The position numbers and the translations under genes were made by a program. DNA of 64,000 bases from Paraphysoderma sedebokerense (lineage: Eukaryota; Blastocladiomycota; Physodermatomycetes; Physodermatales; Physodermataceae): NCBI GenBank assembly GCA_025602915.1, contig JAHLJZ010000068.1, forward strand, positions 1 through 64,000, in the 5' to 3' direction. Shown here piece after piece: positions 3,557 through 30,689 of the stretch. The notes beneath the pieces are model-generated. The model was not told where the DNA came from, ran no database searches, and saw only the letters and a program-made list of their open reading frames with translations. Each line of letters opens with the position of its first letter. The stretch's first letter is position 1.

Positions 3557-3889
3557 ATTGTAGATAAGTTTCAAATTCTAGTATAAAAATAACTGTGAGC
3601 TGTGCGCTGCTACATGTGTGGGTCTCTACCCCAAACTGGGCTTCCCAAAAAATACATGAAGGGTGTGGGTGGGTGGGATGAGCATATTAATTATAGTCAC
3701 TCGCTTCTCGTATAATGTGCAGCAGAACATTTTTTCTTTTACAAAAACTCCTTCCTTTTATAAACAGCCCACAGTCATACAACTGATTCTCAGCTCCAAA
3801 ATCCAAGACACAATGTTAGAGCTTCTTAGAACAAATATCGAATCCCTAAATTATGCAAAGGCAAAAAACTACTATGCTTGCTTTTTTCC

Positions 3890-6800
3890 TTACAAAGAAT
3901 ACCAAGACATTAAATCTTTCGCTTTGCCACCACTATGAACCAAGACCGATCTCTCAATGTCAGATGTTAAGAATTCCAACAGCTCCATGTCTTTCCGAGT
4001 TATTATGGACCAAGAAAGGACGTGAAGACGTCGAGAGAACGATACCAACCCCAGTTTTGAATGTAAGATTTTAAAGAAGCCCGTGTGAGAAACAATGGTA
4101 TATGCAACAACTAATAAACGAAAGGAATCATGACATACACACGCCAACTCTTCGAACCCCTGCCAGTCCAAATATATTGACGTCTAGGTCAGGACTAGGC
4201 AAGTTTAAGATCACCAAATCTGAGTTGCGACTATGATGGTTCATCTCTGTTCTTAATTGAATTGCCGTTTTCGCTTTAAAAAAAGGGGGAATGTAACCAA
4301 TATGTTGGCTGTTCCCAGTCGAATCTTCGGCCACATCTGCTAGCTCTGTTAGTTTTTGCTTCGCATTCGCATTTCTAAATCGCGGAGAATGGAAATGAGA
4401 AGTGATTGGGCGCTTCTTATGATGCGGAAACATATAATGATGATGTCGATGCGCTTGAGAGTTTGAAGTCTCTGTGTCTTCAATCTCCACCTCAGAGAAA
4501 GCCCCATGCGCATTTACAAATTCTGGATTTGATGGATGTAGGACTGAAGACACCGGTGTATGTCCTTGGACAGTTAAACCGGGCAAACCAGCAGTATCGA
4601 GTTCCGAAGGCAACGATGACCCTGCTGTATCGTCATTCATACCGCCATAATTCTGCGAAGGTAAATCAGTTTTTTCCAAGTGATGTTGGTGCTGATGATG
4701 TTTCTGTAAATCCTTCTCAACAGACTCAATCCATGAATTTTGGCGTTTCAATGTTTCGTTCTTTCTTACACTGCCACCTGCTATGTTATCCGCGGTACTT
4801 GCCCGTGTGCGTTTTCTTCCTCTCTCTTCGGCTGGCCCTATCCCTTCCTCTTCATCAGAATCTCCTGACGTGGTAGTTATTTCTTCGTCTGTGGTGTCAT
4901 TATCTATGCCAGCTTCTTCATGATGCATCTCCCTTGCCAACCTATCAGCCATTAACCCAAATTTAAAAGCCTGCCCGCGCGAAAGCGAGGCGGAACGAGA
5001 CGAGCAAGATTTTGGCGATGATGAACGACCTTCCGGGGAGGGTTTTGATTGTAGAGGCACAACATCGAGAATATCCGACATATCCAATGTTATTATGATG
5101 ATTTCGTCGACCTTTTACTAATAATGTCAGATCAACATTTGCAGACGACAATAGCATAGACCCATACCTCGATTCGTAACAATGCAAGATATTTTCTCAG
5201 TTCTAACTCCATTTCAACTACGTTGTCCGTTACATGGGCGGAGGCAAACAATCGAACAGAGCAATTTTTCCAAACTAGATAGAAGAATTGTTTACAATTT
5301 AGTGACCAGTTATTCACATTTTAGTTTAGGTCCGCATTTGATGGGTGGTCAATAACAATGAGACGCTGTAGACGCTGAAAATTTATACCTTGATGCTGCC
5401 GCAAAATAAACGCTAGTAAAAGTATGAGTGGGCCGTCATTGATTATCCACCAAATGTCGATCCTACATTTCGAATGAGTCAGGAGAAGAGAACATTGAGC
5501 AGTTATGCCAACCGGCAAAGTCAACTCACGTTCCACTCAATTCATCCTCATTGGTCGGAAAATTCTGTAAACCTTTACAAATGAATGTTGATAGTCCACC
5601 ACGTTTTGCCTGTGAATCGATTTTTCAGCTTTTGTCATTTGGAGTTTCTTATTCTTTGCTTACACCGACTTACCATTTTCCATAAGTCCCTTAATTCCCT
5701 CACTGATTTGACATTTTCCTCCCACGATGATTTGTCAGGCCATCCACAAACAACTGAATTCGGACTAAGTTCACCGAGCCCTGCCGTTTGCAGTAGTATT
5801 TGCTGTCCTATTCTGACACTAGGACTACTAAAGACTTTGACAAAGCCATCCACATTTTCTTCCTTCATTGCCAATTGCAATCGCACACTTCGACGCATTA
5901 CAACATCGGCGACTACGTTACGCGAGTCCAGTGATAAAGATACGTCTGGAAGTTCCGAAAGGGCTTTGCGGACGTTGGAAGCAGTTCGAGATTCTTCACT
6001 TGTTGTAACGATATGCGCTGTAATTCCCCCGGGCAGGGTAATCATTCATTACCATTGTCCGAAATGGAAAGGCTCCAAAGAGATGCATACAAAGAATACA
6101 CAAACCCCCTCTAACACTTAATTGGCTGATGAAAGACAATAATCGTCTATAACGCAGCTGCCCATCTGGTCGTAAGCTTACAAATGCCAAAATATGAGGT
6201 CTCCAAACGATTTCAGCTCCTTTCTCCGGCGTAGACACGGTTGAGTTAGTGCTATCTTGACGATAACCATAGACTATGTCGAGAGTTTCCGTTCGTGGTA
6301 AATCAATCTGAAATTTGCGCATGGCGAGCTGAAGTTCCGCGTCTTGAACCGCTAGAAGGTGATGCATTGCGAGGGAGTACAGAAGGCCATGAACCGCTGT
6401 AAAAGAAGAGAAAAATTTCGATATAGTTATTTTCTATTGGAAATATTATTGTTATGTGCTGCAAATACTCACCATGGCCCCAGCTATTACGATGTCCATA
6501 TAATTGTATCAATAATGTCACCACCGCCGTAATTACTAGAATTAACAGTCCAGCCCCCCAATTAATGACAAACATTATCACTAAGCAGCCAATTAGCCCC
6601 ATTAAGCTCAGAAGCCAATGATAGTACTTATACGTCGGCCTCCAACTAGGATTTGGGAATATTCCCAAAAGAAACGTCGCAAAATTGGTAAATCCGTAGC
6701 AAAGAATGAATGTCATGGAAACAATGGATGCTAGCGCCTCTAGTTCGGTTATAAAAATAAACGGAACAGTAAAGAGAATGGTAACGATAACTGCAAATCT

Positions 6801-8445
6801 AGGTTCACCGTTTTTGAGATGATGAATGGGAATATAGGGAACGTGAGGAAGGATTCGTGTGACTGATAATGTGTTCAAAACTTTTGAAGCTAATGCGCAG
6901 CAATGTAACGCCGACCCTATTATGTCCAAGTTAAATTGAGGCGATTCCGATAGTATATTATGGTAATTCATACCTTGTCCCACTAGAAACAATCCAATGA
7001 TTGCAATCCACGGACTCGGAAAGGCAATTTCAGGAATTATCATCACGTTGCTAAGAAGTAATTCCCTTTTCACCACACTTCCAATTAAGAGAAACAATGT
7101 CACGTAAAGAGTCGTACTGGTAGCGACTGCACCAAATGCCCCAGTCGGAATACTTTTAAATGGATGTTTCAAGTTCATAGCGTTATTTGTGCCGGAGAAG
7201 ATGCCGACGAAGCATGGAAGAAGGAGGGATATGGCATCCTTAAATGAGAATGAAGAATGGGGGTAGAGATTGGAACGGAGAGTTTCAATTGATAAACCGG
7301 TAACCTGGTGATTAAAATTGTGATGATTAAAGCGAGGGGCCGTAAAGAGACCGAGGAAAACCGCGAGAAACGCGAGTATTAAAGCAAGAAGGAAAAACAT
7401 GGCAAGGCTATCGACCAGGAGAATAAGCCTTAGGAAAACCATCGCTTCATAATGAAAGAACATGAATAATTCTACTAACCGATGGACGATGCTTTTACCG
7501 ATAAAAGCAGAGGCTCCAATGAACAGCAAGCAACCAGACGAGATGATGACTTGGTCCCACAGTGTGTCATCGGTAATCGACAAGTCGGTCGCCTCTATCA
7601 GGCCCTGCACAGAACCCACGACTTAAAAGGACAGAATTAATGAAAGTGACATGATAGAACAGTGCACGGCCTGATAATCGAGTAAGATTGTGATGCCAAA
7701 CCTTCGACGCTAATGAAAATCGCGACGCCAATACAATAAATCAAAGATATAGCCCCTCCAATACCAGTTCCCAACGACTTTGTCAGTATATGTAATACGC
7801 CACCAGTCGGAACACCATTTGTAGCAATTGCTGAAATAGAAGCGACTGTTATAGCCACCGTAAGCGCTGAAATGAATGTGATCGCTGTGGGGTGACCATA
7901 GCGGACCAGGAATAGAAGGAATAAGTTGAAAAATATGTTCACGAAGCCAAGTGCAAATTAAAAATCTACCAACCTATAGAGCAAAGTACACCAGCCTCCC
8001 CCACGATATATCCAAATCGGATAAAAATCAACACACTCCATGCGAACTCACATGTCGGTACCAGCACTCCTTTGAAGGTACCCAACTTCATATTACCATG
8101 GTCCGCTTTATCTACTCGTATACTTGAAACACGCTCATCCAGCGGCAAACCAAATCCATTTGCGATATGCAACTGATCATCGTCGTCAAAGCTAATAAGA
8201 TGTCCATTTCCGGTTGAGGTTGCAGCATAGTTATGCAGCTTCTCACTGGGGTCACAATTGACAGAGGTTTGAAATTGCAAATGCCGATTCGAAGTGGCAG
8301 AGGTCAGAAGAGGTGTTGTAGCAGATGGCTCTGATTCTTCAGTCAATGGATAGGGGGAGGGTAAAGAATCTGGCGAAGACGGTGCTTCTGAAGTCACAGA
8401 GGCGGGATCGGTTATGGTGACTTTTATTTCGGGTATTTTCGTCAT
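3890..8445 (-). CDS. VHC1: Cation-chloride cotransporter (Vhc1/KCC type), complete copy
   Basis: Predicted K-Cl type cotransporter of the SLC12 family; the fungal member Vhc1 sits in the vacuole membrane. Ten exons were rebuilt: 8445-7974, 7884-7702, 7621-6473, 6396-6091, 6017-5674, 5609-5530, 5462-5389, 5274-5168, 5111-4139 and 3990-3890. They total 3789 nt (1262 codons) with consistent phases. Motifs in order: LGTFKGVLVPT at the first membrane segment, SISAIATNG in TM2, LKHPFKSIPTG mid-core, and a hydrophobic core to about residue 600. The C-terminal domain has LSPNSVVCGWP, IDIWWIINDGP, RLFASAHVTDN, SDLVILNLPSP and the terminal MELLEFLT block. An unusual His/Ser-rich stretch of about 270 residues lies in exon 9. 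The first ATG is at 8443-8445; the GTG just upstream is not used. The left edge of the tandem duplication (6172) cuts exon 4, so only this copy is whole. Exon borders are by eye. Confidence 0.88.
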
Positions 8446-8790
8446 CACCGATTTCTAAATTTAAACAGCTTGACAGAGGAATATGAGAGCATATAGATAC
8501 AAAAGGCCTTATATCAGACAAGTAGTAAAAGGTCTAAAGACAGGATAAAAATTCCTGACATTAAGCGGATCGTGATAGCGATTGATGACATCACTGCAAT
8601 TTCGCGTCAACCGGACTTCAATAGATTGTACTTCCCAATTTCAATCTATTTGAGTGATACCGCATTACCTGAGAAACGAAAACTGCCATTAACAATTGCA
8701 CTATGAATTCAGCTATGGGGTGGTGATTTATTCGTAATATCATCTGACCTGTACAACATTTACACTATGAATGCCAGTATACCAACAATG
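8446..8790. other. Intergenic: cotransporter 5' flank and CTK3 3' flank
   Basis: 345 bp between two minus-strand genes. It should contain the cotransporter promoter and the CTK3 3' end. No clear regulatory motif was recognised. It is duplicated at 20705-21049. Confidence 0.5.
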
Positions 8791-10017
8791 TTACCTTCCT
8801 TCAGATACCGACAGTTTTTCCCTTCTCCATTTTTCCATTTCCTCTTTTGCATTATTAGTATCCTCTTCGTCCCATGGAGCAGTTACATCCCACAACAAAT
8901 CAAATTGTACGTCGAGTTGTTCTGATGCGGGACGGATCCAAATTTCCTCTCGGGTCCTTTTGTGCTATCATCACGAGCAAAAGTGTGGCAATGACAACAG
9001 AAAATTTTGAAGTAACAAAACGATGCATTAGAATTCCCGCATTAGCATGAAGATGCTGAGGACTTTAAATGGATGACTCACCCTTTCCCTGTCTTCCTCC
9101 ATCCTCCTAATTATGGTTTCTTTGGAATACGAAGATGGTTCCTTTCGATCTTTCTTTTTCGATGATTTATTACTGTACAAGGCTCAATAAATCAGAATTA
9201 TTCAACGATAGGAGAACAGAGAGTGCAAAAACATGATGAAAACCTTGAATCACGAGCGGTTAGCGGCGTTTCCACCTTCGAGATCAGTTGCTCCGTGAAT
9301 ATTTTATGGGATTTGAGAGAGTGGAGAATCTGCAAAAAAAAGAACAGACATATTTAATATTCAGTAGATGAAACAATGGCAATCCGGCAAAAAGATGCAA
9401 AGCTTCAATAATAAACCCCACAAATCACAAAGTTGACATAACATTCAAATGAAAAGGCATCACAACACTATTACCTACCGATCGGACATACGGAACATTA
9501 GTATTCCCCATCTGATCATGGGGGCAAACTAATTCTATTATTTTCTGCAAATCTTTCTCTGTCAACTTTCTGTAGCCATCAAATCTGTCTCTGACCGACT
9601 GTTGAACGAGTTCGGAGATTGAGTTGAAAATGTTAAGGCGATGTGAGGCCGACGACTAACATCATTTATTATCGTTTATAGAGATTAAGTACAGATGGAA
9701 GGGCCACAATAGGTTGAATTCGTTAGTGTTTATTGTCATAATATTGAATACTTTCTCTGTGAGGTTTTAAACAGGCCATACTTTCAGGCCTGACAAAAAA
9801 TACTGAATAAAGAAGTCCAATCAATACAAATGCAAAAAGATACCTTTTCTAAATCTTCTATCAATAGACCGTACAAGTCATCGTAACATTGTTTATATTT
9901 CAGTCCGAACCGAACAACTTTAGATCGTGATGCCTCGGTAGCGGATAACTTTTTTAACAGATTGAAGAATTCCATTCGAATATCAAACAGATCGAGTTCT
10001 TCATCATGATCTGCCAT
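8791..10017 (-). CDS. CTK3: CTD kinase subunit gamma (copy 1)
   Basis: Regulatory subunit of the CTDK-I complex, which phosphorylates the RNA polymerase II C-terminal repeat in the nucleus. Exon 1 (10017-9844) encodes the CID-like N-terminus with DLFDIRMEFFNLLKKL and VVRFGLKYKQCYDDLY, the family signature. Exon 2 (about 9657-9481) encodes SSASHRLNIFNSISELVQQ and continues the helical fold. Exon 3 (about 9335-9246) and exon 4 carry a basic linker ending RRMEEDRER. The last exon continues HKRTREEIWIRP and ends with an acidic tail, stopping at 8791-8793. Phases agree at all four introns. About 230 residues, slightly shorter than yeast Ctk3. The whole gene is repeated at 21050-22276. Confidence 0.85.
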
Positions 10018-10669
10018 GTTAAAGAAAGATGATTATGAATTCTGTCAGGAAATCAATAAGATGTTATGAACGTGATGATTTTCGAATTGTTATGGGATAA
10101 ATCTCCAAGGAACATCCAGAAGACTCGAATTGGCAGATCGGCATCGTCCTCAAAATCACTCTGACTACATGATACATCAGTCCCCAGATTGTTTGAAATC
10201 ATTCACATATATTCAAATCATTACATAGTGATGTGCCTTAGTCAATAACCCCACAAGACATTGCATTCACAGTTCAGGTTCCAAGGTTTTTATGATCGAA
10301 CGAGGCGATGACAGAAACATAAGATATTGAAAGAATAAGACATTCTATCAAAGAACACAAAGCTATATTCCAAGAGAAAAGTCACTCCTGAAGGTGTTCC
10401 GTAGAGGACATGGACCGTTTTCATTTCCGATACTTCAACATATCTTCTTTGGGTCCACGGATGGTTTGACGCATTCCTCGATTTCATCAGGCGGGGTCGA
10501 ATAGGGTCATGAGCTTGAAAAGATTAATACAAATATGAATGCATTTGGACAACATAATGATCTCGGTGGCAATTAATAGGATCATCCAAACAGATAGACG
10601 TCAATACAACAATTGAGCAACTAATTGCTAATCATCTGTATTATGCTTTCGCAGAACCTATGCTAGAGG
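10018..10669. other. Intergenic, CTK3 upstream
   Basis: 652 bp upstream of CTK3 and downstream of the next minus-strand gene. It contains a 65-codon minus-strand frame (10290-10487) with mixed composition that could not be joined in phase to either neighbour. No RNA gene or regulatory motif was recognised. Repeated at 22277-22928. Confidence 0.45.
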
Positions 10670-11295
10670 CTATTCTTCCCTTACAACCTCATTCGCTTCC
10701 TTTTCTCCTCTTTCTTCCTTCCGAATATCGTCACTAGCATCGTCATCACCCTCTTCCTTGTCATAGTTGTGAACATTCCCTTCATCGTCGATTTCGTCGT
10801 ACATCTTTTCCGCCAATACATCTTCTTCTGTAATGTTAAGGGCGCGGCCTGTACGTTTCTTGTGCAGATCAGATGCCTTTCTTGCCGACTCCATCCGCGC
10901 CTCGAGATCTCGATCGCTAATTTCAAGAGTAAGGGAATCATCATCAGTCAGACGATATGCTCCTGCTAAAGCAATTAAAATTACGGAAAATCATAAAACG
11001 TAAACTAAGGTGCGAGTGGCGCACAAGCCATCTCTAAAATCCTCAAATTCGCAGCACAAGGGTATTGAATCCGTGCACATACCCTCTATGTGAGGCTGCA
11101 ATCAATGAACGTTCCTGATTTTCCTCATGTGTTCTTGGTTCACCATGGTGGCTAGGTTATTAGTAAAAGTATCATTAGTTTCAAATGTATTAACATATAT
11201 CCGTTTGAAAGAACGTACTGTGGAGTAGTCGAATATTTCTCCATGATGTGACTTGAGGTGTGTGGTTTTTGGGCGCCTTGACTGAGTTGCGACAT
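10670..11295 (-). CDS. Small acidic protein with HKKRTGRAL motif (copy 1)
   Basis: Function unknown. The main exon (about 10972-10670) encodes RMESARKASDLHKKRTGRAL followed by NITEEDV and a strongly acidic Asp/Glu tail. As I recall, a similar (H/K)KRTG(R/K)AL-(I/V)TE block followed by an acidic MYEEEDD-like run occurs in uncharacterised proteins across fungi; I know no assigned function. A likely first exon at 11295-11219 starts MSQLSQGAQKPHTSSH and ends at a GTACGT donor. A middle exon near 11157-11086 looks coding but does not fit the phase of the last exon, so the N-terminal structure is tentative. Repeated at 22929-23554. Confidence 0.5.
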
Positions 11296-11739
11296 TGTGA
11301 TTTTTGAAAATTATGTGAAATGCAGAGGTGGGGGTTATGGGTACATTTCTATAGTGGAATCGACAGAGTTTAATCTGTTCGTTACGTCAGTTCGCGATCT
11401 GTACTGACGTCGAAGATAAAGTCATGATGTCATTATGCTGATATATCCGGCGATAAAATTTAATGAAACATTAAGCAAGTATAATTATATCGACTTCATT
11501 TCGATGAAAAAGGTCTGATCTTGATGGCAACCAACGAAAACTGGAATAATAGTTTGAGGCTACACGCGCCGGTGCAAAATACAATTGTTTATACGCAATA
11601 TGGTACAGTGAATACTAGGTTGAAGTTGGCCTAAATTTCGGACGCAAAGGGAAATCAAATATGTCTCAGCTATTACTACATCCATCTCATCATCCAATAT
11701 CATAAAAAGCGGTCAGCTATTGCCGTGTCAAATTTTAAC
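11296..11739. other. Intergenic with inverted TGACGT pair
   Basis: 444 bp between the acidic-protein start and the 3' end of the farnesyltransferase gene. ACGTCAGT (11384-11391) and ACTGACGT (11403-11410) form an 8-bp inverted repeat with an 11-bp spacer. This gives two opposed TGACGT cores about 90-115 bp upstream of the acidic-protein ATG. TGACGT is the core of CRE/bZIP sites, but use here is conjecture. Repeated at 23555-23998. Confidence 0.4.
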
Positions 11740-13743
11740 TTAACACAAAGATCTGATTGTCTCTCCTTTTGTTATACATAAACCCTTAACCCAATCTACA
11801 GACTCCAACGAAACGTTATAAACGGGATGTATCGGCTTTAATGTGTTTTTCTTTCTTTTTCCGATAATTAGTTCTTTCGATTCAGTCACTTTGTAGTGGC
11901 CATCGTATCCGACAGTTTTAGTGTTCGGCTGTAATGTCGGCGAACGCCCTATAGAAGGTGACTGAATAAATTCAAGCTGATGCTGAGCGACCGAAAGGCC
12001 AGAAAGACAATAGCAAGTGTGGTAATAATCAGGGGACCTGCAAGGTTGGAGAAAATAGTGTAAGCATGTTGTAGTGTTTTGGAGACTAACACTAAGTCAA
12101 GGCAATACACACTTTCCGGGTTTATCTCGCAGTCCTTTTTTCGCTTGACAACATATCAGAATATACTCCTGCAGCGCTTCTATAAAGACGAGATAACTCT
12201 GTGTGAATTACCGAATACACGATTCATATTAAACCGCAAAGTGTGGAAATAATCACCTCGATCGAACAGGTATCCGCCGCCCCATTTCTCGCCTCGTCTG
12301 GTCAATTCTGCTTCCACTATTCCAAAGCAACCGCCTACCCAGAAACTATAACATCCATCGACCAGCTTATTAGTTCGCCCGGAAAACCCACCCTCAAGTG
12401 TGAGTTGGCGGGACGCGAGCCATTGCTTTTTAAGTTGATCATTCAACGGAAATGTATCAGCGAAAATCCATAACTTTCTTGAAATTACGACATTGACGTA
12501 CCATTAAGCTTTCAAAATTCAGATCGCCAACTCGCCCTAAAATTTCCAACGCAGCGAGACCGCAGAAGGTGTATCCACCATGAGCTTCAGTATAAGGATA
12601 CCCCGCTATACCACCTTCGTATGTCTGACATCTGTTCATTGCGGGCGTCAAATTACGTCCGATGTGCGGGTTCCGGTTTCTTATAAGCAAGTACAAACCT
12701 TAAGGCAAATTCAGCTGCACCTCTTGAAAGTTCTTCATCTAAGATGTTCAGCAGCGATGCAGTGACAAGAGCGCAATATGTTCCCCTATATTGAATTGAG
12801 ACTTCAGCATTCTTGAGAACGAATAGGGCGATTAGTCACCCATTCACATACCTCACATCAATTTCACCGTCGTGGCACATCCTAAAACTGCCGTCTTCCG
12901 TCTTGACACTGAGCAAGAATTCTCTAAACTTTTCACGGTCAATCATTTCGAATCCTGATGGTTCCTTTAATATTGCGAGGGTAGATACACCGGCGAATGT
13001 TGGTGCAAGATGAGGTAGTTGAGCTGATCCACCTCGGAATCCTCCGCATGGATGAATGTGATTTTGCAGCGTTGATATGATGCTGGAGGTACACGCGAAT
13101 TAATGAAAAAGAATTAGAACTTTCGAACTCACAAATGGAGAATTACCGTTGCTTCATGTCAGAAGTAAATCCGTATCCCATCATATCTAACGAATGAACC
13201 ATCCAATATATCATAAATGGTTTGGAAGCATCGAGAATTTGAAAACCCCAAGGCAATCCTGACAATGCTGACAGAAGGTACTGTCTGTGTGATGAGGTAG
13301 ATAAAGATATTCTATCCACATCGGTAAGGAATGGTTAGATCACAATGTCGACTAAACGATCTCTTTTGCAACTAACTTTGACCTATCTCTTTTGGTTGAT
13401 TCGACATTTGCTTCCAATAAATCATTATTTGCGCCCTTGTCAGAGAGGTTGCCCAACGAGCTTGTCGCTGATTCAGTATCTTCACCTTCTGGAGCAACGC
13501 TATAAGAAACTTCATCTTTGTATTCGCTATATAAATCTAATATCAGATTCTCGGTATCCGACTGGTAAATAATTGTAAATCGAATTGTCAACAGACAGAT
13601 TAATTGAATCAGACGAGACCTCCTTCTGTGGAGCTTCTTTGAATAAACAAGATAGCAACCTGGATTTCGGAAGTCTTTGTGGGCACACCATCGTCATTCT
13701 GACATCGCAGTATAAGTGGAATCGGGGATGTTAATATTGGCAT
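11740..13743 (-). CDS. RAM1: Protein farnesyltransferase subunit beta (copy 1)
   Basis: Catalytic, zinc-binding subunit that attaches farnesyl to CaaX proteins such as Ras and fungal pheromones in the cytosol. The N-terminal exon (ATG at 13741-13743) ends DDGVPTKTSEIQ, a family hallmark. Later exons encode LDASKPFMIYWMVHSL, then HIHPCGGFRGGSAQLPHLAP, then EGGIAGYPYTEAHGGYTFCG. The exon at 12446-12250 has EGGFSGRTNKLVDGCYSFW, with the zinc-ligand Asp and Cys in VDGC. The next exon has EALQEYILICCQ and DKPGK. The last exon begins SPDYYHTCYCLSGLS, with the third zinc ligand His, and stops at 11740. All three ligands are present. The last exon has an extra tail of about 70 residues. Around eight exons; some borders are approximate. 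Repeated at 23999-26002. Confidence 0.88.
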
Positions 13744-14624
13744 TACTTGATATCGTTGCTATGGAATGAAATGTAGAATGGTAATTTGAAACGAAGCAAT
13801 GGCGCTGGCCTCAGTGCCTTTCGTTTACCCGCGCCATTCATTAGAGCTTTCTTACATCTTGTCGCATTTAAAAGCAACTTCTGTAGGTATGAATATTCGT
13901 TCAAGAATTGTAGCTAATATTTACATTGGGATTTATCTGTGCTGAAAGTTCGAGCAATGAATTTGCACAATCCTCTCTGACTTAAACTACGTGCGCAAGC
14001 ACTTACAAAACGGCCAGATGTGTACTGGACTCTAATTTAATGCAGGAAGATGAAAAAAATGCAGGAAGATGCAGAAGTATCTTCTGATCAGCTGATATCT
14101 CAACTGTATTTTATGAATGCCGACAGGGATTGATAGTCTGCTCATGACGAAGACAATCCCGATTGACTTAAAATTGCCGAGTGCAGACGTTCAAGAATTC
14201 TCCAGGAAAGCCCGAAGGCCTATTCATAATCTTATTCTTTGTCGAGGACCTCGATCCTCTTCACAACAAAAACAATAAAGGCAGCGCGACAGAGTTTAAC
14301 CTTTTCGTTTTCGACCTCGTGTGCGTGACAATGCGTAATGCAAATTTGATCGATATTCATACTACAACCGGAACCTTTACGAGAAATACTCCGTAATTTA
14401 GTTGATTATAATGTCAGAGCAATTTGAACATACTACATGTGAGATGTGAATTGATTTTTAATGAACCATCCGGGGAAGCGCGCATCTTCTCCAACAGATG
14501 CTCTGCTTCAACATCAGCCACAAATCAGAGCACAGTAACGCTCGTCTTCAGTGGGTATTAATGAAAATTGAAGATTGGATATTATTATCAATATTAACAA
14601 TATTAGTAGAGTGAAATCCTACAA
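13744..14624. other. Intergenic, no feature seen
   Basis: 881 bp upstream of the farnesyltransferase gene and downstream of the secreted-protein gene. Only short frames (for example 14181-14396, plus) without family features. A 14-bp sequence around AATGCAGGAAGATG occurs twice near 14040-14072, too little to call a repeat. Duplicated at 26003-26883. Confidence 0.5.
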
Positions 14625-18130: not shown

Positions 18131-18392
18131 CTTTTTCTATTTTCCGATATAATGAAATTGAGACAGTCGTCGACTCGTCGGAGAGGGAACGGAGCACAAT
18201 CATTAAATTCCTGAAATCGCTGGTGAACCATTAGTGAACACGCTGTGAACGGGCAATGCAAGGGAATTTCCAATTTTCACTGCGACGAACCAAGTACAGA
18301 GTGCAACCAATACTTTCAATTGTAATCATTAAAAGTTATCATCAAAATGGATATTTAAACTAAGGCCTGCTAGAGTATTAAGTTTATAAGCG

Positions 18393-20704
18393 TCATCTTG
18401 AAGCCAAATAGCTATAGCTAATGGCGTTAAGTAAGCTTACAAATGCCAAAATATGAGGTCTCCAAACGATTTCAGCTCCTTTCTCCGGCGTAGACACGGT
18501 TGAGTTAGTGCTATCTTGACGATAACCATAGACTATGTCGAGAGTTTCCGTTCGTGGTAAATCAATCTGAAATTTGCGCATGGCGAGCTGAAGTTCCGCG
18601 TCTTGAACCGCTAGAAGGTGATGCATTGCGAGGGAGTACAGAAGGCCATGAACCGCTGTAAAAGAAGAGAAAAATTTCGATATAGTTATTTTCTATTGGA
18701 AATATTATTGTTATGTGCTGCAAATACTCACCATGGCCCCAGCTATTACGATGTCCATATAATTGTATCAATAATGTCACCACCGCCGTAATTACTAGAA
18801 TTAACAGTCCAGCCCCCCAATTAATGACAAACATTATCACTAAGCAGCCAATTAGCCCCATTAAGCTCAGAAGCCAATGATAGTACTTATACGTCGGCCT
18901 CCAACTAGGATTTGGGAATATTCCCAAAAGAAACGTCGCAAAATTGGTAAATCCGTAGCAAAGAATGAATGTCATGGAAACAATGGATGCTAGCGCCTCT
19001 AGTTCGGTTATAAAAATAAACGGAACAGTAAAGAGAATGGTAACGATAACTGCAAATCTAGGTTCACCGTTTTTGAGATGATGAATGGGAATATAGGGAA
19101 CGTGAGGAAGGATTCGTGTGACTGATAATGTGTTCAAAACTTTTGAAGCTAATGCGCAGCAATGTAACGCCGACCCTATTATGTCCAAGTTAAATTGAGG
19201 CGATTCCGATAGTATATTATGGTAATTCATACCTTGTCCCACTAGAAACAATCCAATGATTGCAATCCACGGACTCGGAAAGGCAATTTCAGGAATTATC
19301 ATCACGTTGCTAAGAAGTAATTCCCTTTTCACCACACTTCCAATTAAGAGAAACAATGTCACGTAAAGAGTCGTACTGGTAGCGACTGCACCAAATGCCC
19401 CAGTCGGAATACTTTTAAATGGATGTTTCAAGTTCATAGCGTTATTTGTGCCGGAGAAGATGCCGACGAAGCATGGAAGAAGGAGGGATATGGCATCCTT
19501 AAATGAGAATGAAGAATGGGGGTAGAGATTGGAACGGAGAGTTTCAATTGATAAACCGGTAACCTGGTGATTAAAATTGTGATGATTAAAGCGAGGGGCC
19601 GTAAAGAGACCGAGGAAAACCGCGAGAAACGCGAGTATTAAAGCAAGAAGGAAAAACATGGCAAGGCTATCGACCAGGAGAATAAGCCTTAGGAAAACCA
19701 TCGCTTCATAATGAAAGAACATGAATAATTCTACTAACCGATGGACGATGCTTTTACCGATAAAAGCAGAGGCTCCAATGAACAGCAAGCAACCAGACGA
19801 GATGATGACTTGGTCCCACAGTGTGTCATCGGTAATCGACAAGTCGGTCGCCTCTATCAGGCCCTGCACAGAACCCACGACTTAAAAGGACAGAATTAAT
19901 GAAAGTGACATGATAGAACAGTGCACGGCCTGATAATCGAGTAAGATTGTGATGCCAAACCTTCGACGCTAATGAAAATCGCGACGCCAATACAATAAAT
20001 CAAAGATATAGCCCCTCCAATACCAGTTCCCAACGACTTTGTCAGTATATGTAATACGCCACCAGTCGGAACACCATTTGTAGCAATTGCTGAAATAGAA
20101 GCGACTGTTATAGCCACCGTAAGCGCTGAAATGAATGTGATCGCTGTGGGGTGACCATAGCGGACCAGGAATAGAAGGAATAAGTTGAAAAATATGTTCA
20201 CGAAGCCAAGTGCAAATTAAAAATCTACCAACCTATAGAGCAAAGTACACCAGCCTCCCCCACGATATATCCAAATCGGATAAAAATCAACACACTCCAT
20301 GCGAACTCACATGTCGGTACCAGCACTCCTTTGAAGGTACCCAACTTCATATTACCATGGTCCGCTTTATCTACTCGTATACTTGAAACACGCTCATCCA
20401 GCGGCAAACCAAATCCATTTGCGATATGCAACTGATCATCGTCGTCAAAGCTAATAAGATGTCCATTTCCGGTTGAGGTTGCAGCATAGTTATGCAGCTT
20501 CTCACTGGGGTCACAATTGACAGAGGTTTGAAATTGCAAATGCCGATTCGAAGTGGCAGAGGTCAGAAGAGGTGTTGTAGCAGATGGCTCTGATTCTTCA
20601 GTCAATGGATAGGGGGAGGGTAAAGAATCTGGCGAAGACGGTGCTTCTGAAGTCACAGAGGCGGGATCGGTTATGGTGACTTTTATTTCGGGTATTTTCG
20701 TCAT
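18393..20704 (-). CDS. Cotransporter copy 2, C-terminally truncated
   Basis: Duplicate of the first four exons of the cotransporter (20704-20233, 20143-19961, 19880-18732, then 18655 onward). Exon 4 runs into the duplication junction at 18431, and the frame continues 38 bp into the right end of unit 1. This adds LNAISYSYLASR before the stop at 18393. The joined coding length is 2067 nt (688 residues) against 1262 residues for copy 1. All membrane segments remain. The whole conserved cytoplasmic domain (GWP, DIWWI, FASAHVTDN, LNLPSP and MELLEFLT blocks) is missing. It may be a non-functional partial copy or a dominant-negative subunit, since SLC12 carriers are dimers. The promoter region is intact and identical to copy 1. 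Confidence 0.85.
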
Positions 20705-21049
20705 CACCGATTTCTAAATTTAAACAGCTTGACAGAGGAATATGAGAGCATATAGATACAAAAGGCCTTATATCAGACAAGTAGTAAAAGGTCTAAAGAC
20801 AGGATAAAAATTCCTGACATTAAGCGGATCGTGATAGCGATTGATGACATCACTGCAATTTCGCGTCAACCGGACTTCAATAGATTGTACTTCCCAATTT
20901 CAATCTATTTGAGTGATACCGCATTACCTGAGAAACGAAAACTGCCATTAACAATTGCACTATGAATTCAGCTATGGGGTGGTGATTTATTCGTAATATC
21001 ATCTGACCTGTACAACATTTACACTATGAATGCCAGTATACCAACAATG

Positions 21050-22276
21050 TTACCTTCCTTCAGATACCGACAGTTTTTCCCTTCTCCATTTTTCCATTTC
21101 CTCTTTTGCATTATTAGTATCCTCTTCGTCCCATGGAGCAGTTACATCCCACAACAAATCAAATTGTACGTCGAGTTGTTCTGATGCGGGACGGATCCAA
21201 ATTTCCTCTCGGGTCCTTTTGTGCTATCATCACGAGCAAAAGTGTGGCAATGACAACAGAAAATTTTGAAGTAACAAAACGATGCATTAGAATTCCCGCA
21301 TTAGCATGAAGATGCTGAGGACTTTAAATGGATGACTCACCCTTTCCCTGTCTTCCTCCATCCTCCTAATTATGGTTTCTTTGGAATACGAAGATGGTTC
21401 CTTTCGATCTTTCTTTTTCGATGATTTATTACTGTACAAGGCTCAATAAATCAGAATTATTCAACGATAGGAGAACAGAGAGTGCAAAAACATGATGAAA
21501 ACCTTGAATCACGAGCGGTTAGCGGCGTTTCCACCTTCGAGATCAGTTGCTCCGTGAATATTTTATGGGATTTGAGAGAGTGGAGAATCTGCAAAAAAAA
21601 GAACAGACATATTTAATATTCAGTAGATGAAACAATGGCAATCCGGCAAAAAGATGCAAAGCTTCAATAATAAACCCCACAAATCACAAAGTTGACATAA
21701 CATTCAAATGAAAAGGCATCACAACACTATTACCTACCGATCGGACATACGGAACATTAGTATTCCCCATCTGATCATGGGGGCAAACTAATTCTATTAT
21801 TTTCTGCAAATCTTTCTCTGTCAACTTTCTGTAGCCATCAAATCTGTCTCTGACCGACTGTTGAACGAGTTCGGAGATTGAGTTGAAAATGTTAAGGCGA
21901 TGTGAGGCCGACGACTAACATCATTTATTATCGTTTATAGAGATTAAGTACAGATGGAAGGGCCACAATAGGTTGAATTCGTTAGTGTTTATTGTCATAA
22001 TATTGAATACTTTCTCTGTGAGGTTTTAAACAGGCCATACTTTCAGGCCTGACAAAAAATACTGAATAAAGAAGTCCAATCAATACAAATGCAAAAAGAT
22101 ACCTTTTCTAAATCTTCTATCAATAGACCGTACAAGTCATCGTAACATTGTTTATATTTCAGTCCGAACCGAACAACTTTAGATCGTGATGCCTCGGTAG
22201 CGGATAACTTTTTTAACAGATTGAAGAATTCCATTCGAATATCAAACAGATCGAGTTCTTCATCATGATCTGCCAT
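21050..22276 (-). CDS. CTK3: CTD kinase subunit gamma (copy 2)
   Basis: Identical copy of the gene at 8791-10017. All five exons and splice sites are retained and the start ATG is at 22274-22276, so it should be functional. CTK3 acts in stoichiometric complex with CTK1 and CTK2, so an extra copy would unbalance the complex unless dosage is buffered. Both flanks up to the neighbouring genes are also duplicated, so promoter and terminator should match copy 1. Confidence 0.85.
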
Positions 22277-22928
22277 GTTAAAGAAAGATGATTATGAATT
22301 CTGTCAGGAAATCAATAAGATGTTATGAACGTGATGATTTTCGAATTGTTATGGGATAAATCTCCAAGGAACATCCAGAAGACTCGAATTGGCAGATCGG
22401 CATCGTCCTCAAAATCACTCTGACTACATGATACATCAGTCCCCAGATTGTTTGAAATCATTCACATATATTCAAATCATTACATAGTGATGTGCCTTAG
22501 TCAATAACCCCACAAGACATTGCATTCACAGTTCAGGTTCCAAGGTTTTTATGATCGAACGAGGCGATGACAGAAACATAAGATATTGAAAGAATAAGAC
22601 ATTCTATCAAAGAACACAAAGCTATATTCCAAGAGAAAAGTCACTCCTGAAGGTGTTCCGTAGAGGACATGGACCGTTTTCATTTCCGATACTTCAACAT
22701 ATCTTCTTTGGGTCCACGGATGGTTTGACGCATTCCTCGATTTCATCAGGCGGGGTCGAATAGGGTCATGAGCTTGAAAAGATTAATACAAATATGAATG
22801 CATTTGGACAACATAATGATCTCGGTGGCAATTAATAGGATCATCCAAACAGATAGACGTCAATACAACAATTGAGCAACTAATTGCTAATCATCTGTAT
22901 TATGCTTTCGCAGAACCTATGCTAGAGG

Positions 22929-23554
22929 CTATTCTTCCCTTACAACCTCATTCGCTTCCTTTTCTCCTCTTTCTTCCTTCCGAATATCGTCACTAGCATC
23001 GTCATCACCCTCTTCCTTGTCATAGTTGTGAACATTCCCTTCATCGTCGATTTCGTCGTACATCTTTTCCGCCAATACATCTTCTTCTGTAATGTTAAGG
23101 GCGCGGCCTGTACGTTTCTTGTGCAGATCAGATGCCTTTCTTGCCGACTCCATCCGCGCCTCGAGATCTCGATCGCTAATTTCAAGAGTAAGGGAATCAT
23201 CATCAGTCAGACGATATGCTCCTGCTAAAGCAATTAAAATTACGGAAAATCATAAAACGTAAACTAAGGTGCGAGTGGCGCACAAGCCATCTCTAAAATC
23301 CTCAAATTCGCAGCACAAGGGTATTGAATCCGTGCACATACCCTCTATGTGAGGCTGCAATCAATGAACGTTCCTGATTTTCCTCATGTGTTCTTGGTTC
23401 ACCATGGTGGCTAGGTTATTAGTAAAAGTATCATTAGTTTCAAATGTATTAACATATATCCGTTTGAAAGAACGTACTGTGGAGTAGTCGAATATTTCTC
23501 CATGATGTGACTTGAGGTGTGTGGTTTTTGGGCGCCTTGACTGAGTTGCGACAT
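22929..23554 (-). CDS. Small acidic protein with HKKRTGRAL motif (copy 2)
   Basis: Identical copy of 10670-11295, including the upstream inverted TGACGT pair (23643-23669). The same uncertainty over the N-terminal exons applies. Function unknown. Confidence 0.5.
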
Positions 23555-23998
23555 TGTGATTTTTGAAAATTATGTGAAATGCAGAGGTGGGGGTTATGGG
23601 TACATTTCTATAGTGGAATCGACAGAGTTTAATCTGTTCGTTACGTCAGTTCGCGATCTGTACTGACGTCGAAGATAAAGTCATGATGTCATTATGCTGA
23701 TATATCCGGCGATAAAATTTAATGAAACATTAAGCAAGTATAATTATATCGACTTCATTTCGATGAAAAAGGTCTGATCTTGATGGCAACCAACGAAAAC
23801 TGGAATAATAGTTTGAGGCTACACGCGCCGGTGCAAAATACAATTGTTTATACGCAATATGGTACAGTGAATACTAGGTTGAAGTTGGCCTAAATTTCGG
23901 ACGCAAAGGGAAATCAAATATGTCTCAGCTATTACTACATCCATCTCATCATCCAATATCATAAAAAGCGGTCAGCTATTGCCGTGTCAAATTTTAAC

Positions 23999-26002
23999 TT
24001 AACACAAAGATCTGATTGTCTCTCCTTTTGTTATACATAAACCCTTAACCCAATCTACAGACTCCAACGAAACGTTATAAACGGGATGTATCGGCTTTAA
24101 TGTGTTTTTCTTTCTTTTTCCGATAATTAGTTCTTTCGATTCAGTCACTTTGTAGTGGCCATCGTATCCGACAGTTTTAGTGTTCGGCTGTAATGTCGGC
24201 GAACGCCCTATAGAAGGTGACTGAATAAATTCAAGCTGATGCTGAGCGACCGAAAGGCCAGAAAGACAATAGCAAGTGTGGTAATAATCAGGGGACCTGC
24301 AAGGTTGGAGAAAATAGTGTAAGCATGTTGTAGTGTTTTGGAGACTAACACTAAGTCAAGGCAATACACACTTTCCGGGTTTATCTCGCAGTCCTTTTTT
24401 CGCTTGACAACATATCAGAATATACTCCTGCAGCGCTTCTATAAAGACGAGATAACTCTGTGTGAATTACCGAATACACGATTCATATTAAACCGCAAAG
24501 TGTGGAAATAATCACCTCGATCGAACAGGTATCCGCCGCCCCATTTCTCGCCTCGTCTGGTCAATTCTGCTTCCACTATTCCAAAGCAACCGCCTACCCA
24601 GAAACTATAACATCCATCGACCAGCTTATTAGTTCGCCCGGAAAACCCACCCTCAAGTGTGAGTTGGCGGGACGCGAGCCATTGCTTTTTAAGTTGATCA
24701 TTCAACGGAAATGTATCAGCGAAAATCCATAACTTTCTTGAAATTACGACATTGACGTACCATTAAGCTTTCAAAATTCAGATCGCCAACTCGCCCTAAA
24801 ATTTCCAACGCAGCGAGACCGCAGAAGGTGTATCCACCATGAGCTTCAGTATAAGGATACCCCGCTATACCACCTTCGTATGTCTGACATCTGTTCATTG
24901 CGGGCGTCAAATTACGTCCGATGTGCGGGTTCCGGTTTCTTATAAGCAAGTACAAACCTTAAGGCAAATTCAGCTGCACCTCTTGAAAGTTCTTCATCTA
25001 AGATGTTCAGCAGCGATGCAGTGACAAGAGCGCAATATGTTCCCCTATATTGAATTGAGACTTCAGCATTCTTGAGAACGAATAGGGCGATTAGTCACCC
25101 ATTCACATACCTCACATCAATTTCACCGTCGTGGCACATCCTAAAACTGCCGTCTTCCGTCTTGACACTGAGCAAGAATTCTCTAAACTTTTCACGGTCA
25201 ATCATTTCGAATCCTGATGGTTCCTTTAATATTGCGAGGGTAGATACACCGGCGAATGTTGGTGCAAGATGAGGTAGTTGAGCTGATCCACCTCGGAATC
25301 CTCCGCATGGATGAATGTGATTTTGCAGCGTTGATATGATGCTGGAGGTACACGCGAATTAATGAAAAAGAATTAGAACTTTCGAACTCACAAATGGAGA
25401 ATTACCGTTGCTTCATGTCAGAAGTAAATCCGTATCCCATCATATCTAACGAATGAACCATCCAATATATCATAAATGGTTTGGAAGCATCGAGAATTTG
25501 AAAACCCCAAGGCAATCCTGACAATGCTGACAGAAGGTACTGTCTGTGTGATGAGGTAGATAAAGATATTCTATCCACATCGGTAAGGAATGGTTAGATC
25601 ACAATGTCGACTAAACGATCTCTTTTGCAACTAACTTTGACCTATCTCTTTTGGTTGATTCGACATTTGCTTCCAATAAATCATTATTTGCGCCCTTGTC
25701 AGAGAGGTTGCCCAACGAGCTTGTCGCTGATTCAGTATCTTCACCTTCTGGAGCAACGCTATAAGAAACTTCATCTTTGTATTCGCTATATAAATCTAAT
25801 ATCAGATTCTCGGTATCCGACTGGTAAATAATTGTAAATCGAATTGTCAACAGACAGATTAATTGAATCAGACGAGACCTCCTTCTGTGGAGCTTCTTTG
25901 AATAAACAAGATAGCAACCTGGATTTCGGAAGTCTTTGTGGGCACACCATCGTCATTCTGACATCGCAGTATAAGTGGAATCGGGGATGTTAATATTGGC
26001 AT
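23999..26002 (-). CDS. RAM1: Protein farnesyltransferase subunit beta (copy 2)
   Basis: Identical copy of 11740-13743. The zinc-ligand motifs VDGC and YYHTCYC and the whole exon set are present, so it looks functional. The enzyme is an alpha/beta heterodimer. No alpha-subunit gene is in the window, so extra beta subunit would not by itself raise activity. Confidence 0.88.
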
Positions 26003-26883
26003 TACTTGATATCGTTGCTATGGAATGAAATGTAGAATGGTAATTTGAAACGAAGCAATGGCGCTGGCCTCAGTGCCTTTCGTTTACCCGCGCCATTCAT
26101 TAGAGCTTTCTTACATCTTGTCGCATTTAAAAGCAACTTCTGTAGGTATGAATATTCGTTCAAGAATTGTAGCTAATATTTACATTGGGATTTATCTGTG
26201 CTGAAAGTTCGAGCAATGAATTTGCACAATCCTCTCTGACTTAAACTACGTGCGCAAGCACTTACAAAACGGCCAGATGTGTACTGGACTCTAATTTAAT
26301 GCAGGAAGATGAAAAAAATGCAGGAAGATGCAGAAGTATCTTCTGATCAGCTGATATCTCAACTGTATTTTATGAATGCCGACAGGGATTGATAGTCTGC
26401 TCATGACGAAGACAATCCCGATTGACTTAAAATTGCCGAGTGCAGACGTTCAAGAATTCTCCAGGAAAGCCCGAAGGCCTATTCATAATCTTATTCTTTG
26501 TCGAGGACCTCGATCCTCTTCACAACAAAAACAATAAAGGCAGCGCGACAGAGTTTAACCTTTTCGTTTTCGACCTCGTGTGCGTGACAATGCGTAATGC
26601 AAATTTGATCGATATTCATACTACAACCGGAACCTTTACGAGAAATACTCCGTAATTTAGTTGATTATAATGTCAGAGCAATTTGAACATACTACATGTG
26701 AGATGTGAATTGATTTTTAATGAACCATCCGGGGAAGCGCGCATCTTCTCCAACAGATGCTCTGCTTCAACATCAGCCACAAATCAGAGCACAGTAACGC
26801 TCGTCTTCAGTGGGTATTAATGAAAATTGAAGATTGGATATTATTATCAATATTAACAATATTAGTAGAGTGAAATCCTACAA

Positions 26884-27804
26884 CTACACTAGAAATTGTT
26901 CACGACTCGCTTTCACATTGCCACGGCCAGCTTTCAAGTCATCTTGAGATAAAGGCGTCTTCCTTTCCACAAATGGGTGACTCTTAACACCTCTAGCTCC
27001 TTGTGTATGTTCCGACAATTGTGTATCGACTGGAACAACTTTGACTTCCTTATTCCAAAATGTTTTGCCGCATACTTCTTCAATGTCATTCCTATAACTT
27101 CTTCCTTCACCCATACTCCAATAGTAGATCAAGGGTTGAACACCAATAGGTTGAATGTACTGCGGGTTCCAGTATAGGCGATTCCATTCTGTGCATAGAA
27201 CATTGGTGTATTTCTTTTTATCGAAATGTTTATCCGTAGTACGATTTGGGTCAAAGAAGTAATTGTTGTACGAAAAATAGGCCAGTTCTACAGCGTACTG
27301 ATTCGTCTCAAACCCATCAATGGTGACGTTGAATGGCTTGCATGCTGCTTTTGTCGCTTTTTCGTTTGCCCAAGTGCGATAAACAGAGTACTGATTGTGG
27401 GGGGCATAGTCGACGATTGGTTGAGCACACGAAGAATTGATTGCTTTCGAGACAGTAATCAACGAGTCGACGCAAGTAGAGTTACATAAAAACTCGGGAG
27501 TCGAAAAGAAAGGCGAAGAATGATGACATTGGCTGATGGATTTGTTGGTTGCTGGGTCAGCAATTAGAGAGCGCACTGTGGATTGACATTTCTCGGAGTT
27601 GATTCTAAGGTGCATAAAAAACGGGGGAAGGTTCGGGATTGCGAATTTGTCATCTGCAGTAGCATGGCCTTGAATGGATGATGCTGTCGGCGGGGACGAT
27701 AATGACGACTTCAGCAGTGGTTTTTGAATGCCAAGGCTGGAAGAGAATGTCACAGTGACAGATAAAAGTACGACGACCAAGGTCAATTTTGATATCGACA
27801 TCAT
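26884..27804 (-). CDS. Secreted Cys-containing protein, family unknown (copy 2)
   Basis: Identical copy of 14625-15545: 306 residues with the same signal peptide, Cys pattern and sequons. It is intronless, so the copy is complete as read. Secreted-protein genes are common beneficiaries of copy gain, but no selection signal can be read from two identical copies. Confidence 0.75.
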   Translation of the reverse strand: MMSISKLTLVVVLLSVTVTFSSSLGIQKPLLKSSLSSPPTASSIQGHATADDKFAIPNLPPFFMHLRINSEKCQSTVRSLIADPATNKSISQCHHSSPFFSTPEFLCNSTCVDSLITVSKAINSSCAQPIVDYAPHNQYSVYRTWANEKATKAACKPFNVTIDGFETNQYAVELAYFSYNNYFFDPNRTTDKHFDKKKYTNVLCTEWNRLYWNPQYIQPIGVQPLIYYWSMGEGRSYRNDIEEVCGKTFWNKEVKVVPVDTQLSEHTQGARGVKSHPFVERKTPLSQDDLKAGRGNVKASREQFLV

Positions 27805-29086
27805 CTGTCCTTGCTGGTTGTACTAATATACGAATTCGCTGATATGAATAGAGCAGGTATGCTTCGCTCTTCCGAGAATGAGAAACAAGGTGTGGACTTT
27901 ATATTAGGTAGGATTTGCGGGTAATATCTACGCAGACAGGGAAGACAGGCGTTAACAGCGTTTTGCAGCTAAATATACTCGACAGCAGAAACCAGAAACA
28001 ACGGTGAACTATATATCGAAAATCTTGCAAGAAAGCCCTCGAGTCGAATGTGCCGCGGTTGGCGTGGGACTAGTTCCCATATTATCGGACATAAAACCGT
28101 CGGGGAAAGAATGTCCTGAGCCTAATCGCAATGATGGAGCTTGCGTGTCTGTTCGTGATGTCACTCGCTCCGTTGGCTCTCGTCGCCTGACAATGATGCA
28201 CCACGTCGCGCAATACCGATTGTCAACTGATACCGATATGGGCCAGTCTGAATGTGGGAATCTGCTATGTCCAGATTGCTTGATTGTTACTTGTTTGAGT
28301 CTAATAATGTGGGTTCGGCAGTCCTTCTGTAGAACAGGTACTGAGGAACATCTGCAAACGGTCTTTATCAGCTGATAATTTCTCCTGCACTTTCAACAGA
28401 ACCTCGCTGTATTACTGATTGTTTGAACCGGGTACTCAGATATATTCCACTGATGAACGGCCAAGGAATGTTGTCAGGGATGTATCTTAGAATTTCGACC
28501 CACCGCCACAGAAATAAATTAAACTCTTTATGTCCCTCTCGCAGCGTAAAATTTATCAACTATTGTCAATGAAAAGAGGCAAGGCCAAGAAAACACATCC
28601 AGGATGAATTGCAAAGCATAATACACATCTATACCGATAATCGAAAGACCATCAATGCATACATATCAACGGGCAAATCAGTAAAAAATTTTAATAATGT
28701 CAGGGAAAGCCTGAACTCTATTTACAAAAGGAATGTCTGATTATTGTCATAGCCAAATCCGTCCATTATGCTTCCACGAAAACAGTAACGACTTCCTACA
28801 GATTTGAACACGTTACAACGGACTGACACAAAAGTTCTTTCTATAAATTGTAAGAAATCGATCCACAAAAAGAAATTCAACAAGATGACCACTTCAAAGA
28901 CAATTGATACTTCAGGTATGCTATAGAAAGGTCCAAAATCCATGAGAACACAATTATGAACAAGTGGGGGTCGGAGGAGGAGGGTAAAATTGCGAATGAG
29001 ATTTATACAGTTGACAACAATGGGTGAATGGTCTAAATACGAGATTACTGGGTTATTCGAGGGTATAGATGTCAGTTTTTGGCCAG

Positions 29087-30389
29087 TTAACAAATTGATC
29101 CGCAGCTGAAGCTTTTCCCTCCGATGAATCCACGGAATCCTGTATGAGCAAGTAACAAGAATTTCGCAAAAGATTTGAGTTATACTGATGCAAAGCACAT
29201 GATCGCATGTGGGGAAAGCAAGAAGAACTTACCGACAAATTCGCAGTCGATGTTATCGCCCCTAACCGGTCTTAACATTTTAACCAAGATGTATCTCCCA
29301 CTTCTTGGCACTTCCAGCTTTACGATCGCCTTTCCGAGTTTATAGTCTAATTTAAAATACGCTGCCGGTTCAATTGGAGCGATAGGAATAGATGCGGATT
29401 CCGATTTGGCTAAATAAGCGAGGTACTTATTCTGATCAAAATGGTCAAAATGTGATGTTGCTGTGATGTGTAATAGGGATCGGAAGCATATCATGAATTA
29501 ATACGAACGCCACAACAACACAGAGAATCGGTTGCAAACAAACATTAGACATATGTATGAGGTAATAGATCATGGGAAATTCGAAACACAAACCTTCAAC
29601 CGGAATGGGTTCGTGACTGATGAAAACGAGTCCATCCTTTATCGGTGCGGTGAAACCTGCAATAAAAAATCAATCATTAGTGGTGGTTGCATCATACACG
29701 TGATAATTGTAAAGATCCCATCTGCGTACCAGTAAGAGGGGCTTTTACTACAATTTCTTGCACCGTAAACACGGCATTTGGTGGTACCGATGAGCTCGGC
29801 AAGAGTTGCAACGACAGATGAACGTTACGTTTTTTGAGGGAACAGTAGACTGAGCTATCATTTTGGAGGAGGTTTTTGGCCGAATACGCATCACTGGACA
29901 AAAAGAATTCGAAAAGAGACAGATATTTATGAATTTCATAACTCACTTGATGCGATCCCGAATGTTTGAACTCCGCTCAATCGCTAACAAGCCATCGCAA
30001 TCGATGCATTCGAATCTCAAAAATCCTTCCTTCTCCAAACTACTGCAGTCTTTATTGGCAGTCACACATCCATTTTCATCTTCAATCGGCCGATTCCCAC
30101 GCCTGTTTCCGACGGCATTGGCAGGGTCTGCCCGTCGAATGGTCCCCCGGTACGACGAACCAGATCTGGAACGTGCAAAACCTAAATTCGATACAGTATA
30201 TGAATTCGTCTCTGAAGATGAAGAATTCGAGCTAGCGGGACGTAGCGAGGAAGACGAAGCCGAGGGAGAATTCGACGAAGACGACGAGTTGGTGTTGTTG
30301 GAGGTCTCTAAATCCCGCAATGCGATAATTCTTCGTATATAGGAACTCTGCTGGCTATATGCCGTCGGTAGCGCAGACTCTGGCCTCAT
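29087..30389 (-). CDS. Ser-rich protein with beta-sandwich-like C-terminus (copy 2)
   Basis: Identical copy of 16828-18130. Its 5' flank is identical to copy 1 for 300 bp (to 30689). Beyond that it continues into unique DNA shared with the FTR1 promoter, whereas copy 1 faces the truncated cotransporter end. This copy therefore probably keeps the ancestral upstream region, and the two may differ in expression. Confidence 0.7.
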
Positions 30390-30689
30390 CTTTTTCTATT
30401 TTCCGATATAATGAAATTGAGACAGTCGTCGACTCGTCGGAGAGGGAACGGAGCACAATCATTAAATTCCTGAAATCGCTGGTGAACCATTAGTGAACAC
30501 GCTGTGAACGGGCAATGCAAGGGAATTTCCAATTTTCACTGCGACGAACCAAGTACAGAGTGCAACCAATACTTTCAATTGTAATCATTAAAAGTTATCA
30601 TCAAAATGGATATTTAAACTAAGGCCTGCTAGAGTATTAAGTTTATAAGCGTCATCTTGAAGCCAAATAGCTATAGCTAATGGCGTTAA

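What the first reader, a model, noticed from the sequence alone, without database searches (positions are those of the whole stretch)
6172..30689. Identical 12,259-bp head-to-tail duplication of a multigene block
Two adjacent units carry five complete genes and one partial gene. All open frames are offset by exactly 12,259 bp with identical translations, and compared intergenic DNA shows no difference. It is either a very recent segmental duplication (doubling CTK3, RAM1 and a secreted protein) or an assembly artefact.
Basis: seen in the sequence. Interest (0 to 1): 0.75.

Follow-up and report, generated by a model that had tools for sequence, protein, structure and literature searches.

The report
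Likely false duplication from genome assembly
A 12,259-base block that stands twice in a row, letter for letter, in a draft fungus-like genome is most likely an error of the genome assembly, because the same draft holds at least eight other exact back-to-back copies and one of those is contradicted by an overlapping contig that has the block only once.

Summary
The block has no further copy in the 27.29 Mb assembly. But eight other same-contig, same-strand duplications turned up, offsets 3,088 to 64,172 bp, exact wherever compared inside. Most telling is contig C87: it ends exactly on the last base of a second 7,584-bp copy, while overlapping contig C105 starts with 55 bp of the same left flank and runs through one copy into new sequence. 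Contigs C34 and C98 share an unmerged 7,478-bp end overlap. In 326,412 bp read in full, no repeat over 1 kb lies between 85% and 99.9% identity. Best reading: overlapping contig ends joined without trimming. The second CTK3, prenyltransferase and secreted-protein genes, and the truncated K-Cl cotransporter, should not be counted until reads are mapped. No reads were available; a real duplication at this locus is not excluded.

The parts
6172..18430 (.). copy 1 of the exact unit (U), 12,259 bp
   Evidence: identical to 18431-30689, 0 differences
18431..30689 (.). copy 2 of the exact unit (U), 12,259 bp
18430..18431 (.). head-to-tail join, no N, no inserted bases, 0 shared bases on either side
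5638..8445 (-). SLC12 / K-Cl cotransporter gene of copy 1, continuous across the left edge of U into the flank (limits approximate; exons not fully modelled)
   Evidence: PF00324 on 6306-7622 and, below the Pfam cut-off, on 7640-7957; PF03522 on 5638-6045; K-Cl cotransporters in PDB; first ATG ORF 7966-8445
18396..20704 (-). truncated SLC12 copy in copy 2: keeps the membrane part, loses the C-terminal domain, reads 12 new residues across the join and then a stop
   Evidence: for the frame across the join; for the domain left behind at 5638-6045
9428..10032 (-). CTK3-like gene, copy 1 (two ORFs)
   Evidence: PF12243
21687..22291 (-). CTK3-like gene, copy 2
   Evidence: identical at +12,259
10293..11386 (-). 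ORFs of a possible gene of unknown family, copy 1
   Evidence: ORFs; 10673-10990 has no Pfam match
22552..23645 (-). same ORFs, copy 2
   Evidence: identical at +12,259
   Evidence: PF00432 on three ORFs
24442..25358 (-). prenyltransferase beta-type gene, copy 2
   Evidence: identical at +12,259
14625..15545 (-).
   Evidence: no Pfam match, no relative but itself
26884..27804 (-). 306-aa ORF, copy 2
16924..18130 (-). ORFs of a possible gene of unknown family, copy 1; only about 300 bp lie between its first ORF and the join
   Evidence: no Pfam match on 16924-17238, 17436-17717, 17687-18136
29183..30389 (-). same ORFs, copy 2, with the native upstream DNA
   Evidence: identical at +12,259
1..61 (.). 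first 61 bases of contig C68, a dispersed repeat that also forms bases 1-61 of contigs C61 and C53 (100%)

Best explanation
The second copy is a false duplication made during assembly. In the genome the order is most likely left flank - U - right flank, once. One assembled piece ended at the end of U (now 18430), another began at the start of U (now 18431), and the two were joined end to end without trimming their 12,259-bp exact overlap. Shown: exact identity, gapless join without shared bases, eight other such duplications in the assembly, an unmerged exact contig-end overlap, and one locus where an overlapping contig carries a single copy. Inferred: that the C68 block arose in the same way, and which step of the assembly did it.
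For: (1) Eight other same-contig, same-strand duplications, found in a 200-kb read of C1 and in four family searches: C1 3,088 bp, C87 7,584, C31 15,785, C17 18,860, C28 19,159, C27 33,212, C71 40,562, C15 64,172. The C1 unit is exact in full; C27 is fixed to the base at both edges; C87 too; C15 is exact at 7 of 7 pairs inside the block (6; 1). (2) If a block is an abutting tandem of length D, exactly one of two probe pairs placed half an offset either side of a known match must agree: this held for 4 of 4 testable blocks (C17, C28, C31, C87), and at C71 the one testable pair agreed 60/60. (3) C87 ends on the very last base of its second copy (82334 + 2 x 7584 - 1 = 97501 = contig length), while C105 starts with 55 bp of the left flank, has one copy, and continues with bases that are not the start of U; the RRM search finds one match in C105 where a second copy would give two. 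(4) C34's last 7,478 bases correspond to C98:1-7478; both ends of the overlap agree (80/80 and 60/60). (5) In 326,412 bp, repeats over 1 kb are either exact (two) or at most 84.6% identical. (6) Shared bases at the joins: 0/0 (C68), 0/1 (C1), 0/0 (C87), and none on either side at C27, as expected of arbitrary ends. (7) An exact 33- or 64-kb tandem is hard to assemble through with reads shorter than the unit (established knowledge; the read type here is unknown).
Against: At C68 itself nothing contradicts a real duplication: no third contig carries the block once, the join has no N, and no contig-end trace is left there. Exact identity alone does not prove an artefact: C1 also holds a 737-bp exact copy with differing flanks, which looks like a genuine recent copy or gene conversion. 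Not all redundancy is simple end overlap: the C41/C97 shared block failed both end probes (8/60, 13/60), and C7's start lies inside C9 in inverted orientation, 45,840 bases from C9's end. The eight comparison blocks were picked because their scores were equal, so older, diverged blocks would have been missed by the family searches. A sample with two kinds of nuclei could yield both C87 and C105.
Confidence: 0.84

Rival explanations
1. A real, very recent tandem duplication of 12,259 bp, made by end joining or replication slippage between unrelated ends. It would double CTK3, a prenyltransferase beta subunit, an orphan protein and two unknown genes, and leave a truncated K-Cl cotransporter.
For: Exact head-to-tail units in one gapless contig; blunt joins are compatible with end joining; copy 1 keeps the cotransporter intact, as a tandem duplication would. 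With 0 differences in 12,259 bp the 95% upper bound on divergence is 2.4e-4, so it need not be younger than many generations.
Against: The same signature recurs at eight other loci of very different length, all exact where compared; no intermediate divergence in 326,412 bp; the C87/C105 pair shows a single copy.
Confidence: 0.11
2. The join exists in DNA but not in the standard chromosome: extrachromosomal circles, a minor fraction of nuclei, or circularised library fragments supplied reads with U-end joined to U-start, and the assembler unrolled the loop.
For: Gapless joins with 0-1 shared bases are what circularised fragments would give; it explains why C87 and C105 disagree.
Against: Unit lengths run from 3 to 64 kb, longer than usual circularised library fragments (established knowledge); C87 stopping exactly at the end of copy 2 is not expected of an unrolled loop.
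Confidence: 0.05

Closest known systems
Homotype false duplication in genome assemblies (passages seen in PMC8081667, and PMC9516828)
   Same: Copies without haplotype differences, tied to contig boundaries and overlapping contig ends, on one scaffold; read as false gene gains.
   Different: Those passages describe units of about read length, often with an assembly gap between the copies or with sequence errors; here the joins I could read are gapless and the units reach 64 kb.
Heterotype (haplotypic) false duplication (same passages)
   Same: Two copies of one locus placed side by side in a haploid assembly.
   Different: It brings allelic differences; here there are 0 in 12,259 bp.
Recent tandem segmental duplication
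   Same: Head-to-tail order, intact gene at one edge, truncated copy at the join.
   Different: An age spectrum would be expected; none was seen in 326,412 bp, and one comparison locus is contradicted by a single-copy contig.

Membership tests
Homotype false duplication | no haplotype differences between the copies | tested here: met
   0 differences in 12,259 bp
Homotype false duplication | read depth per copy below the flanks | not testable with these tools
   no reads available
Homotype false duplication | lies at a contig boundary | tested here: inconclusive
   No trace left at 18430 in C68; met at C87, whose second copy ends on the contig's last base
Homotype false duplication | gap, or sequence unsupported by reads, between the copies | tested here: inconclusive
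   No N at the join. The passage in PMC9516828 says copies are most often separated by a gap and sometimes connected by stretches without read support; the second form cannot be tested here
Homotype false duplication | a single-copy arrangement exists in the same data | tested here: inconclusive
   None found for C68; met for C87/C105
Heterotype false duplication | allelic differences between the copies | tested here: not met
   0 differences
Real tandem segmental duplication | head-to-tail units on one contig | tested here: met
Real tandem segmental duplication | reads span the join and depth doubles | not testable with these tools
   no reads available

The most novel reading that the evidence does not exclude
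The exact blocks are real: this organism has undergone a recent burst of head-to-tail duplications from 3 to 64 kb with almost no shared bases at the joins, a genome-wide tandem-duplicator state, with nuclei of both single-copy and duplicated type in the sample (which would explain C87 against C105).
Probability: 0.06. Interest if true: 0.8.

Novelty: not a real feature. Interest (0 to 1): 0.14.

Why it matters
Taken at face value the block adds five genes and a truncated transporter to the gene set. The nine offsets found so far add up to 214,681 bp of extra sequence (0.8% of the assembly; sum of the offsets), a lower bound. Gene-family, dosage or recent-duplication studies that use this assembly would count false gains. 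A check for exact head-to-tail blocks and exact contig-end overlaps would find them without reads.

Tried and rejected
Heterotype (allelic) duplication: rejected, 0 differences. A transposon, tRNA or known RNA at the edges: no tRNA (ARAGORN with the bacterial code), no Rfam match in the window, no repeat pairing the edges. The only tandem array TRF lists is a 12-bp unit at 48126-48168, outside the block. A circularised library fragment of about 3 or 12 kb as sole source: made unlikely by 33- and 64-kb units. Naming the organism from assembly size: two paper searches found 0 papers each (27.3 Mb with 195 contigs and fung; 27.3 Mb with 195 scaffolds). A search for a paper on this kind of error in fungal assemblies gave a listing of 4 that I did not open. 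An MFS family search (12 matches) showed no equal-score pair. The equal-score pairs were picked by eye from the rows; the PF00069 list was cut short of its 171 matches. I left out equal scores between neighbouring WD40 units inside one frame (C186, C11). Organism and phylum were not established; 'fungus-like' rests on the CTK3 family match and on recall.

Full report
Observation. The window is the first 64,000 bases of contig C68 (126,412 bp) of an unnamed 27,287,198-bp assembly in 195 contigs. At offset 12,259 the sequence is identical from 6172 to 18430 against 18431 to 30689, with no difference, and identity stops at once on both sides. The join has no N and no shared bases. Both halves of the unit were searched in the whole assembly; there are only these two copies, apart from a 72-base match at 79% on C35.

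Anatomy. The genes recognised in the unit lie on the minus strand. The left edge cuts an SLC12-type K-Cl cotransporter (PF00324 on 6306-7622; best PDB matches are K-Cl cotransporters). Its C-terminal domain (PF03522) lies at 5638-6045, in the left flank. So copy 1 of the gene is whole across the edge, while copy 2 loses that domain, reads 12 new residues through the join and stops. Next come CTK3 (two ORFs), ORFs of unknown family, a prenyltransferase beta-type gene (three ORFs), a 306-aa orphan and a second set of unknown ORFs. This arrangement is what either a tandem duplication or an untrimmed overlap would give; it does not choose between them.

Is this locus alone? No. In C1:1-200000, read in full, there is a second exact head-to-tail duplication: 3,088-bp unit, 133116-136203 and 136204-139291, identical run 3,089 bp, one shared base at the join. 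It lies inside one member of an older paralog array (68-75% identity) whose other members do not have the internal duplication. I then used Pfam searches of the assembly as a survey and looked, by eye, for matches of equal score on one contig. PF00069 (171 matches, list cut), PF00400 (150), PF00076 (112) and PF07690 (12) gave seven such places, all with both copies on the same strand: C15 (offset 64,172), C27 (33,212), C71 (40,562), C17 (18,860), C31 (15,785), C28 (19,159) and C87 (7,584).

Are they abutting tandems? C27: the left edge is at 94213 and the search by place gives 94213 onwards, 127224-127624 and up to 160636 at 100%, so the copies are 94213-127424 and 127425-160636. For C17, C28, C31 and C87 exactly one of the two half-offset probe pairs agrees, as a tandem requires; for C71 the one testable pair agrees.

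The telling case. In C87 the unit starts at 82334 and the second copy ends at 97501, which is the contig's last base. Contig C105 starts with C87:82279-82333, the left flank, then has the unit once (56-7639), and then goes on with bases that are not the start of the unit. A contig that reads flank, one unit, other flank contradicts a flank, unit, unit order, unless the sample held two kinds of nuclei. Likewise C34 from 227563 to its last base, 235040, corresponds to C98:1-7478, checked at both ends: a long exact end overlap that was never merged. Join two such contigs without trimming and the result is what C68 shows.

Other pointers. In the 326,412 bp read in full, self-comparison gives two exact blocks and otherwise repeats of at most 84.6% identity over 1 kb. 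A living process of segmental duplication should leave some of 90-99%. C68 begins with 61 bases that are also bases 1-61 of C61 and C53, and C15's last 52 bases match them in reverse at 98%; several contigs thus break at one short dispersed repeat, as graph assemblers do (inference). The end of the C27 unit also lies in a short dispersed repeat. No such repeat showed at the C68 join.

Against this reading. Nothing at C68 itself contradicts a real duplication. The join is gapless. The comparison blocks were chosen by equal score, which hides diverged ones. Two inter-contig cases are not simple end overlaps: C41/C97 failed at both ends, and C7's first bases lie inside C9, inverted. A 737-bp exact copy in C1 with different flanks shows that exact copies can also be genuine.

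Literature. From passages only: PMC8081667 calls homotype duplications those that occur near contig boundaries or from under-collapsed sequence, and in one case traces them to an assembler bug. PMC9516828 lists low depth and gaps between the copies as their marks and shows that they are taken for gene gains. The gapless joins here differ from the usual gap.

Verdict. Observation confirmed; most likely an assembly artefact (0.84), real tandem duplication 0.11, non-chromosomal or minor junction 0.05. Interest is low for biology, useful as a warning for this assembly.

Noticed in passing
G000 C1:86483-89975 (L019): Two neighbouring copies of a small gene with a signal-like start, 84.6% over 1.4 kb but with a 737-bp stretch that is exactly identical through the introns while the flanks differ; looks like recent gene conversion or copying. 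The resemblance to Gas1/egh16-like secreted proteins is recalled, from no call.
   Followed up: partly
G000 C7:1-40301 and C9:466092-506392: Agree at both ends probed, in opposite orientation, and have equal-score kinase matches; C7's first base lies inside C9, 45,840 bases from its end.
   Followed up: partly
G000 C41:87420-87671 and C97:76709-76960: Two WD40 matches of equal score at the same spacing on two contigs; not an end overlap by the two probes made.
   Followed up: partly
window 1-61: Contigs C68, C61 and C53 begin with the same 61 bases, and a similar stretch ends C15 in reverse; a dispersed short repeat with 38 matches listed for bases 1-400.
   Followed up: no
G000 C1:120706-148095: Array of long paralogous units at 68-75% identity, one of which carries the 3,088-bp exact internal duplication. 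Gene family not identified.
   Followed up: no
L006-equivalent place C68:76586-81385: A 1.6-kb direct repeat at 66% identity, an older tandem pair on the same contig.
   Followed up: no
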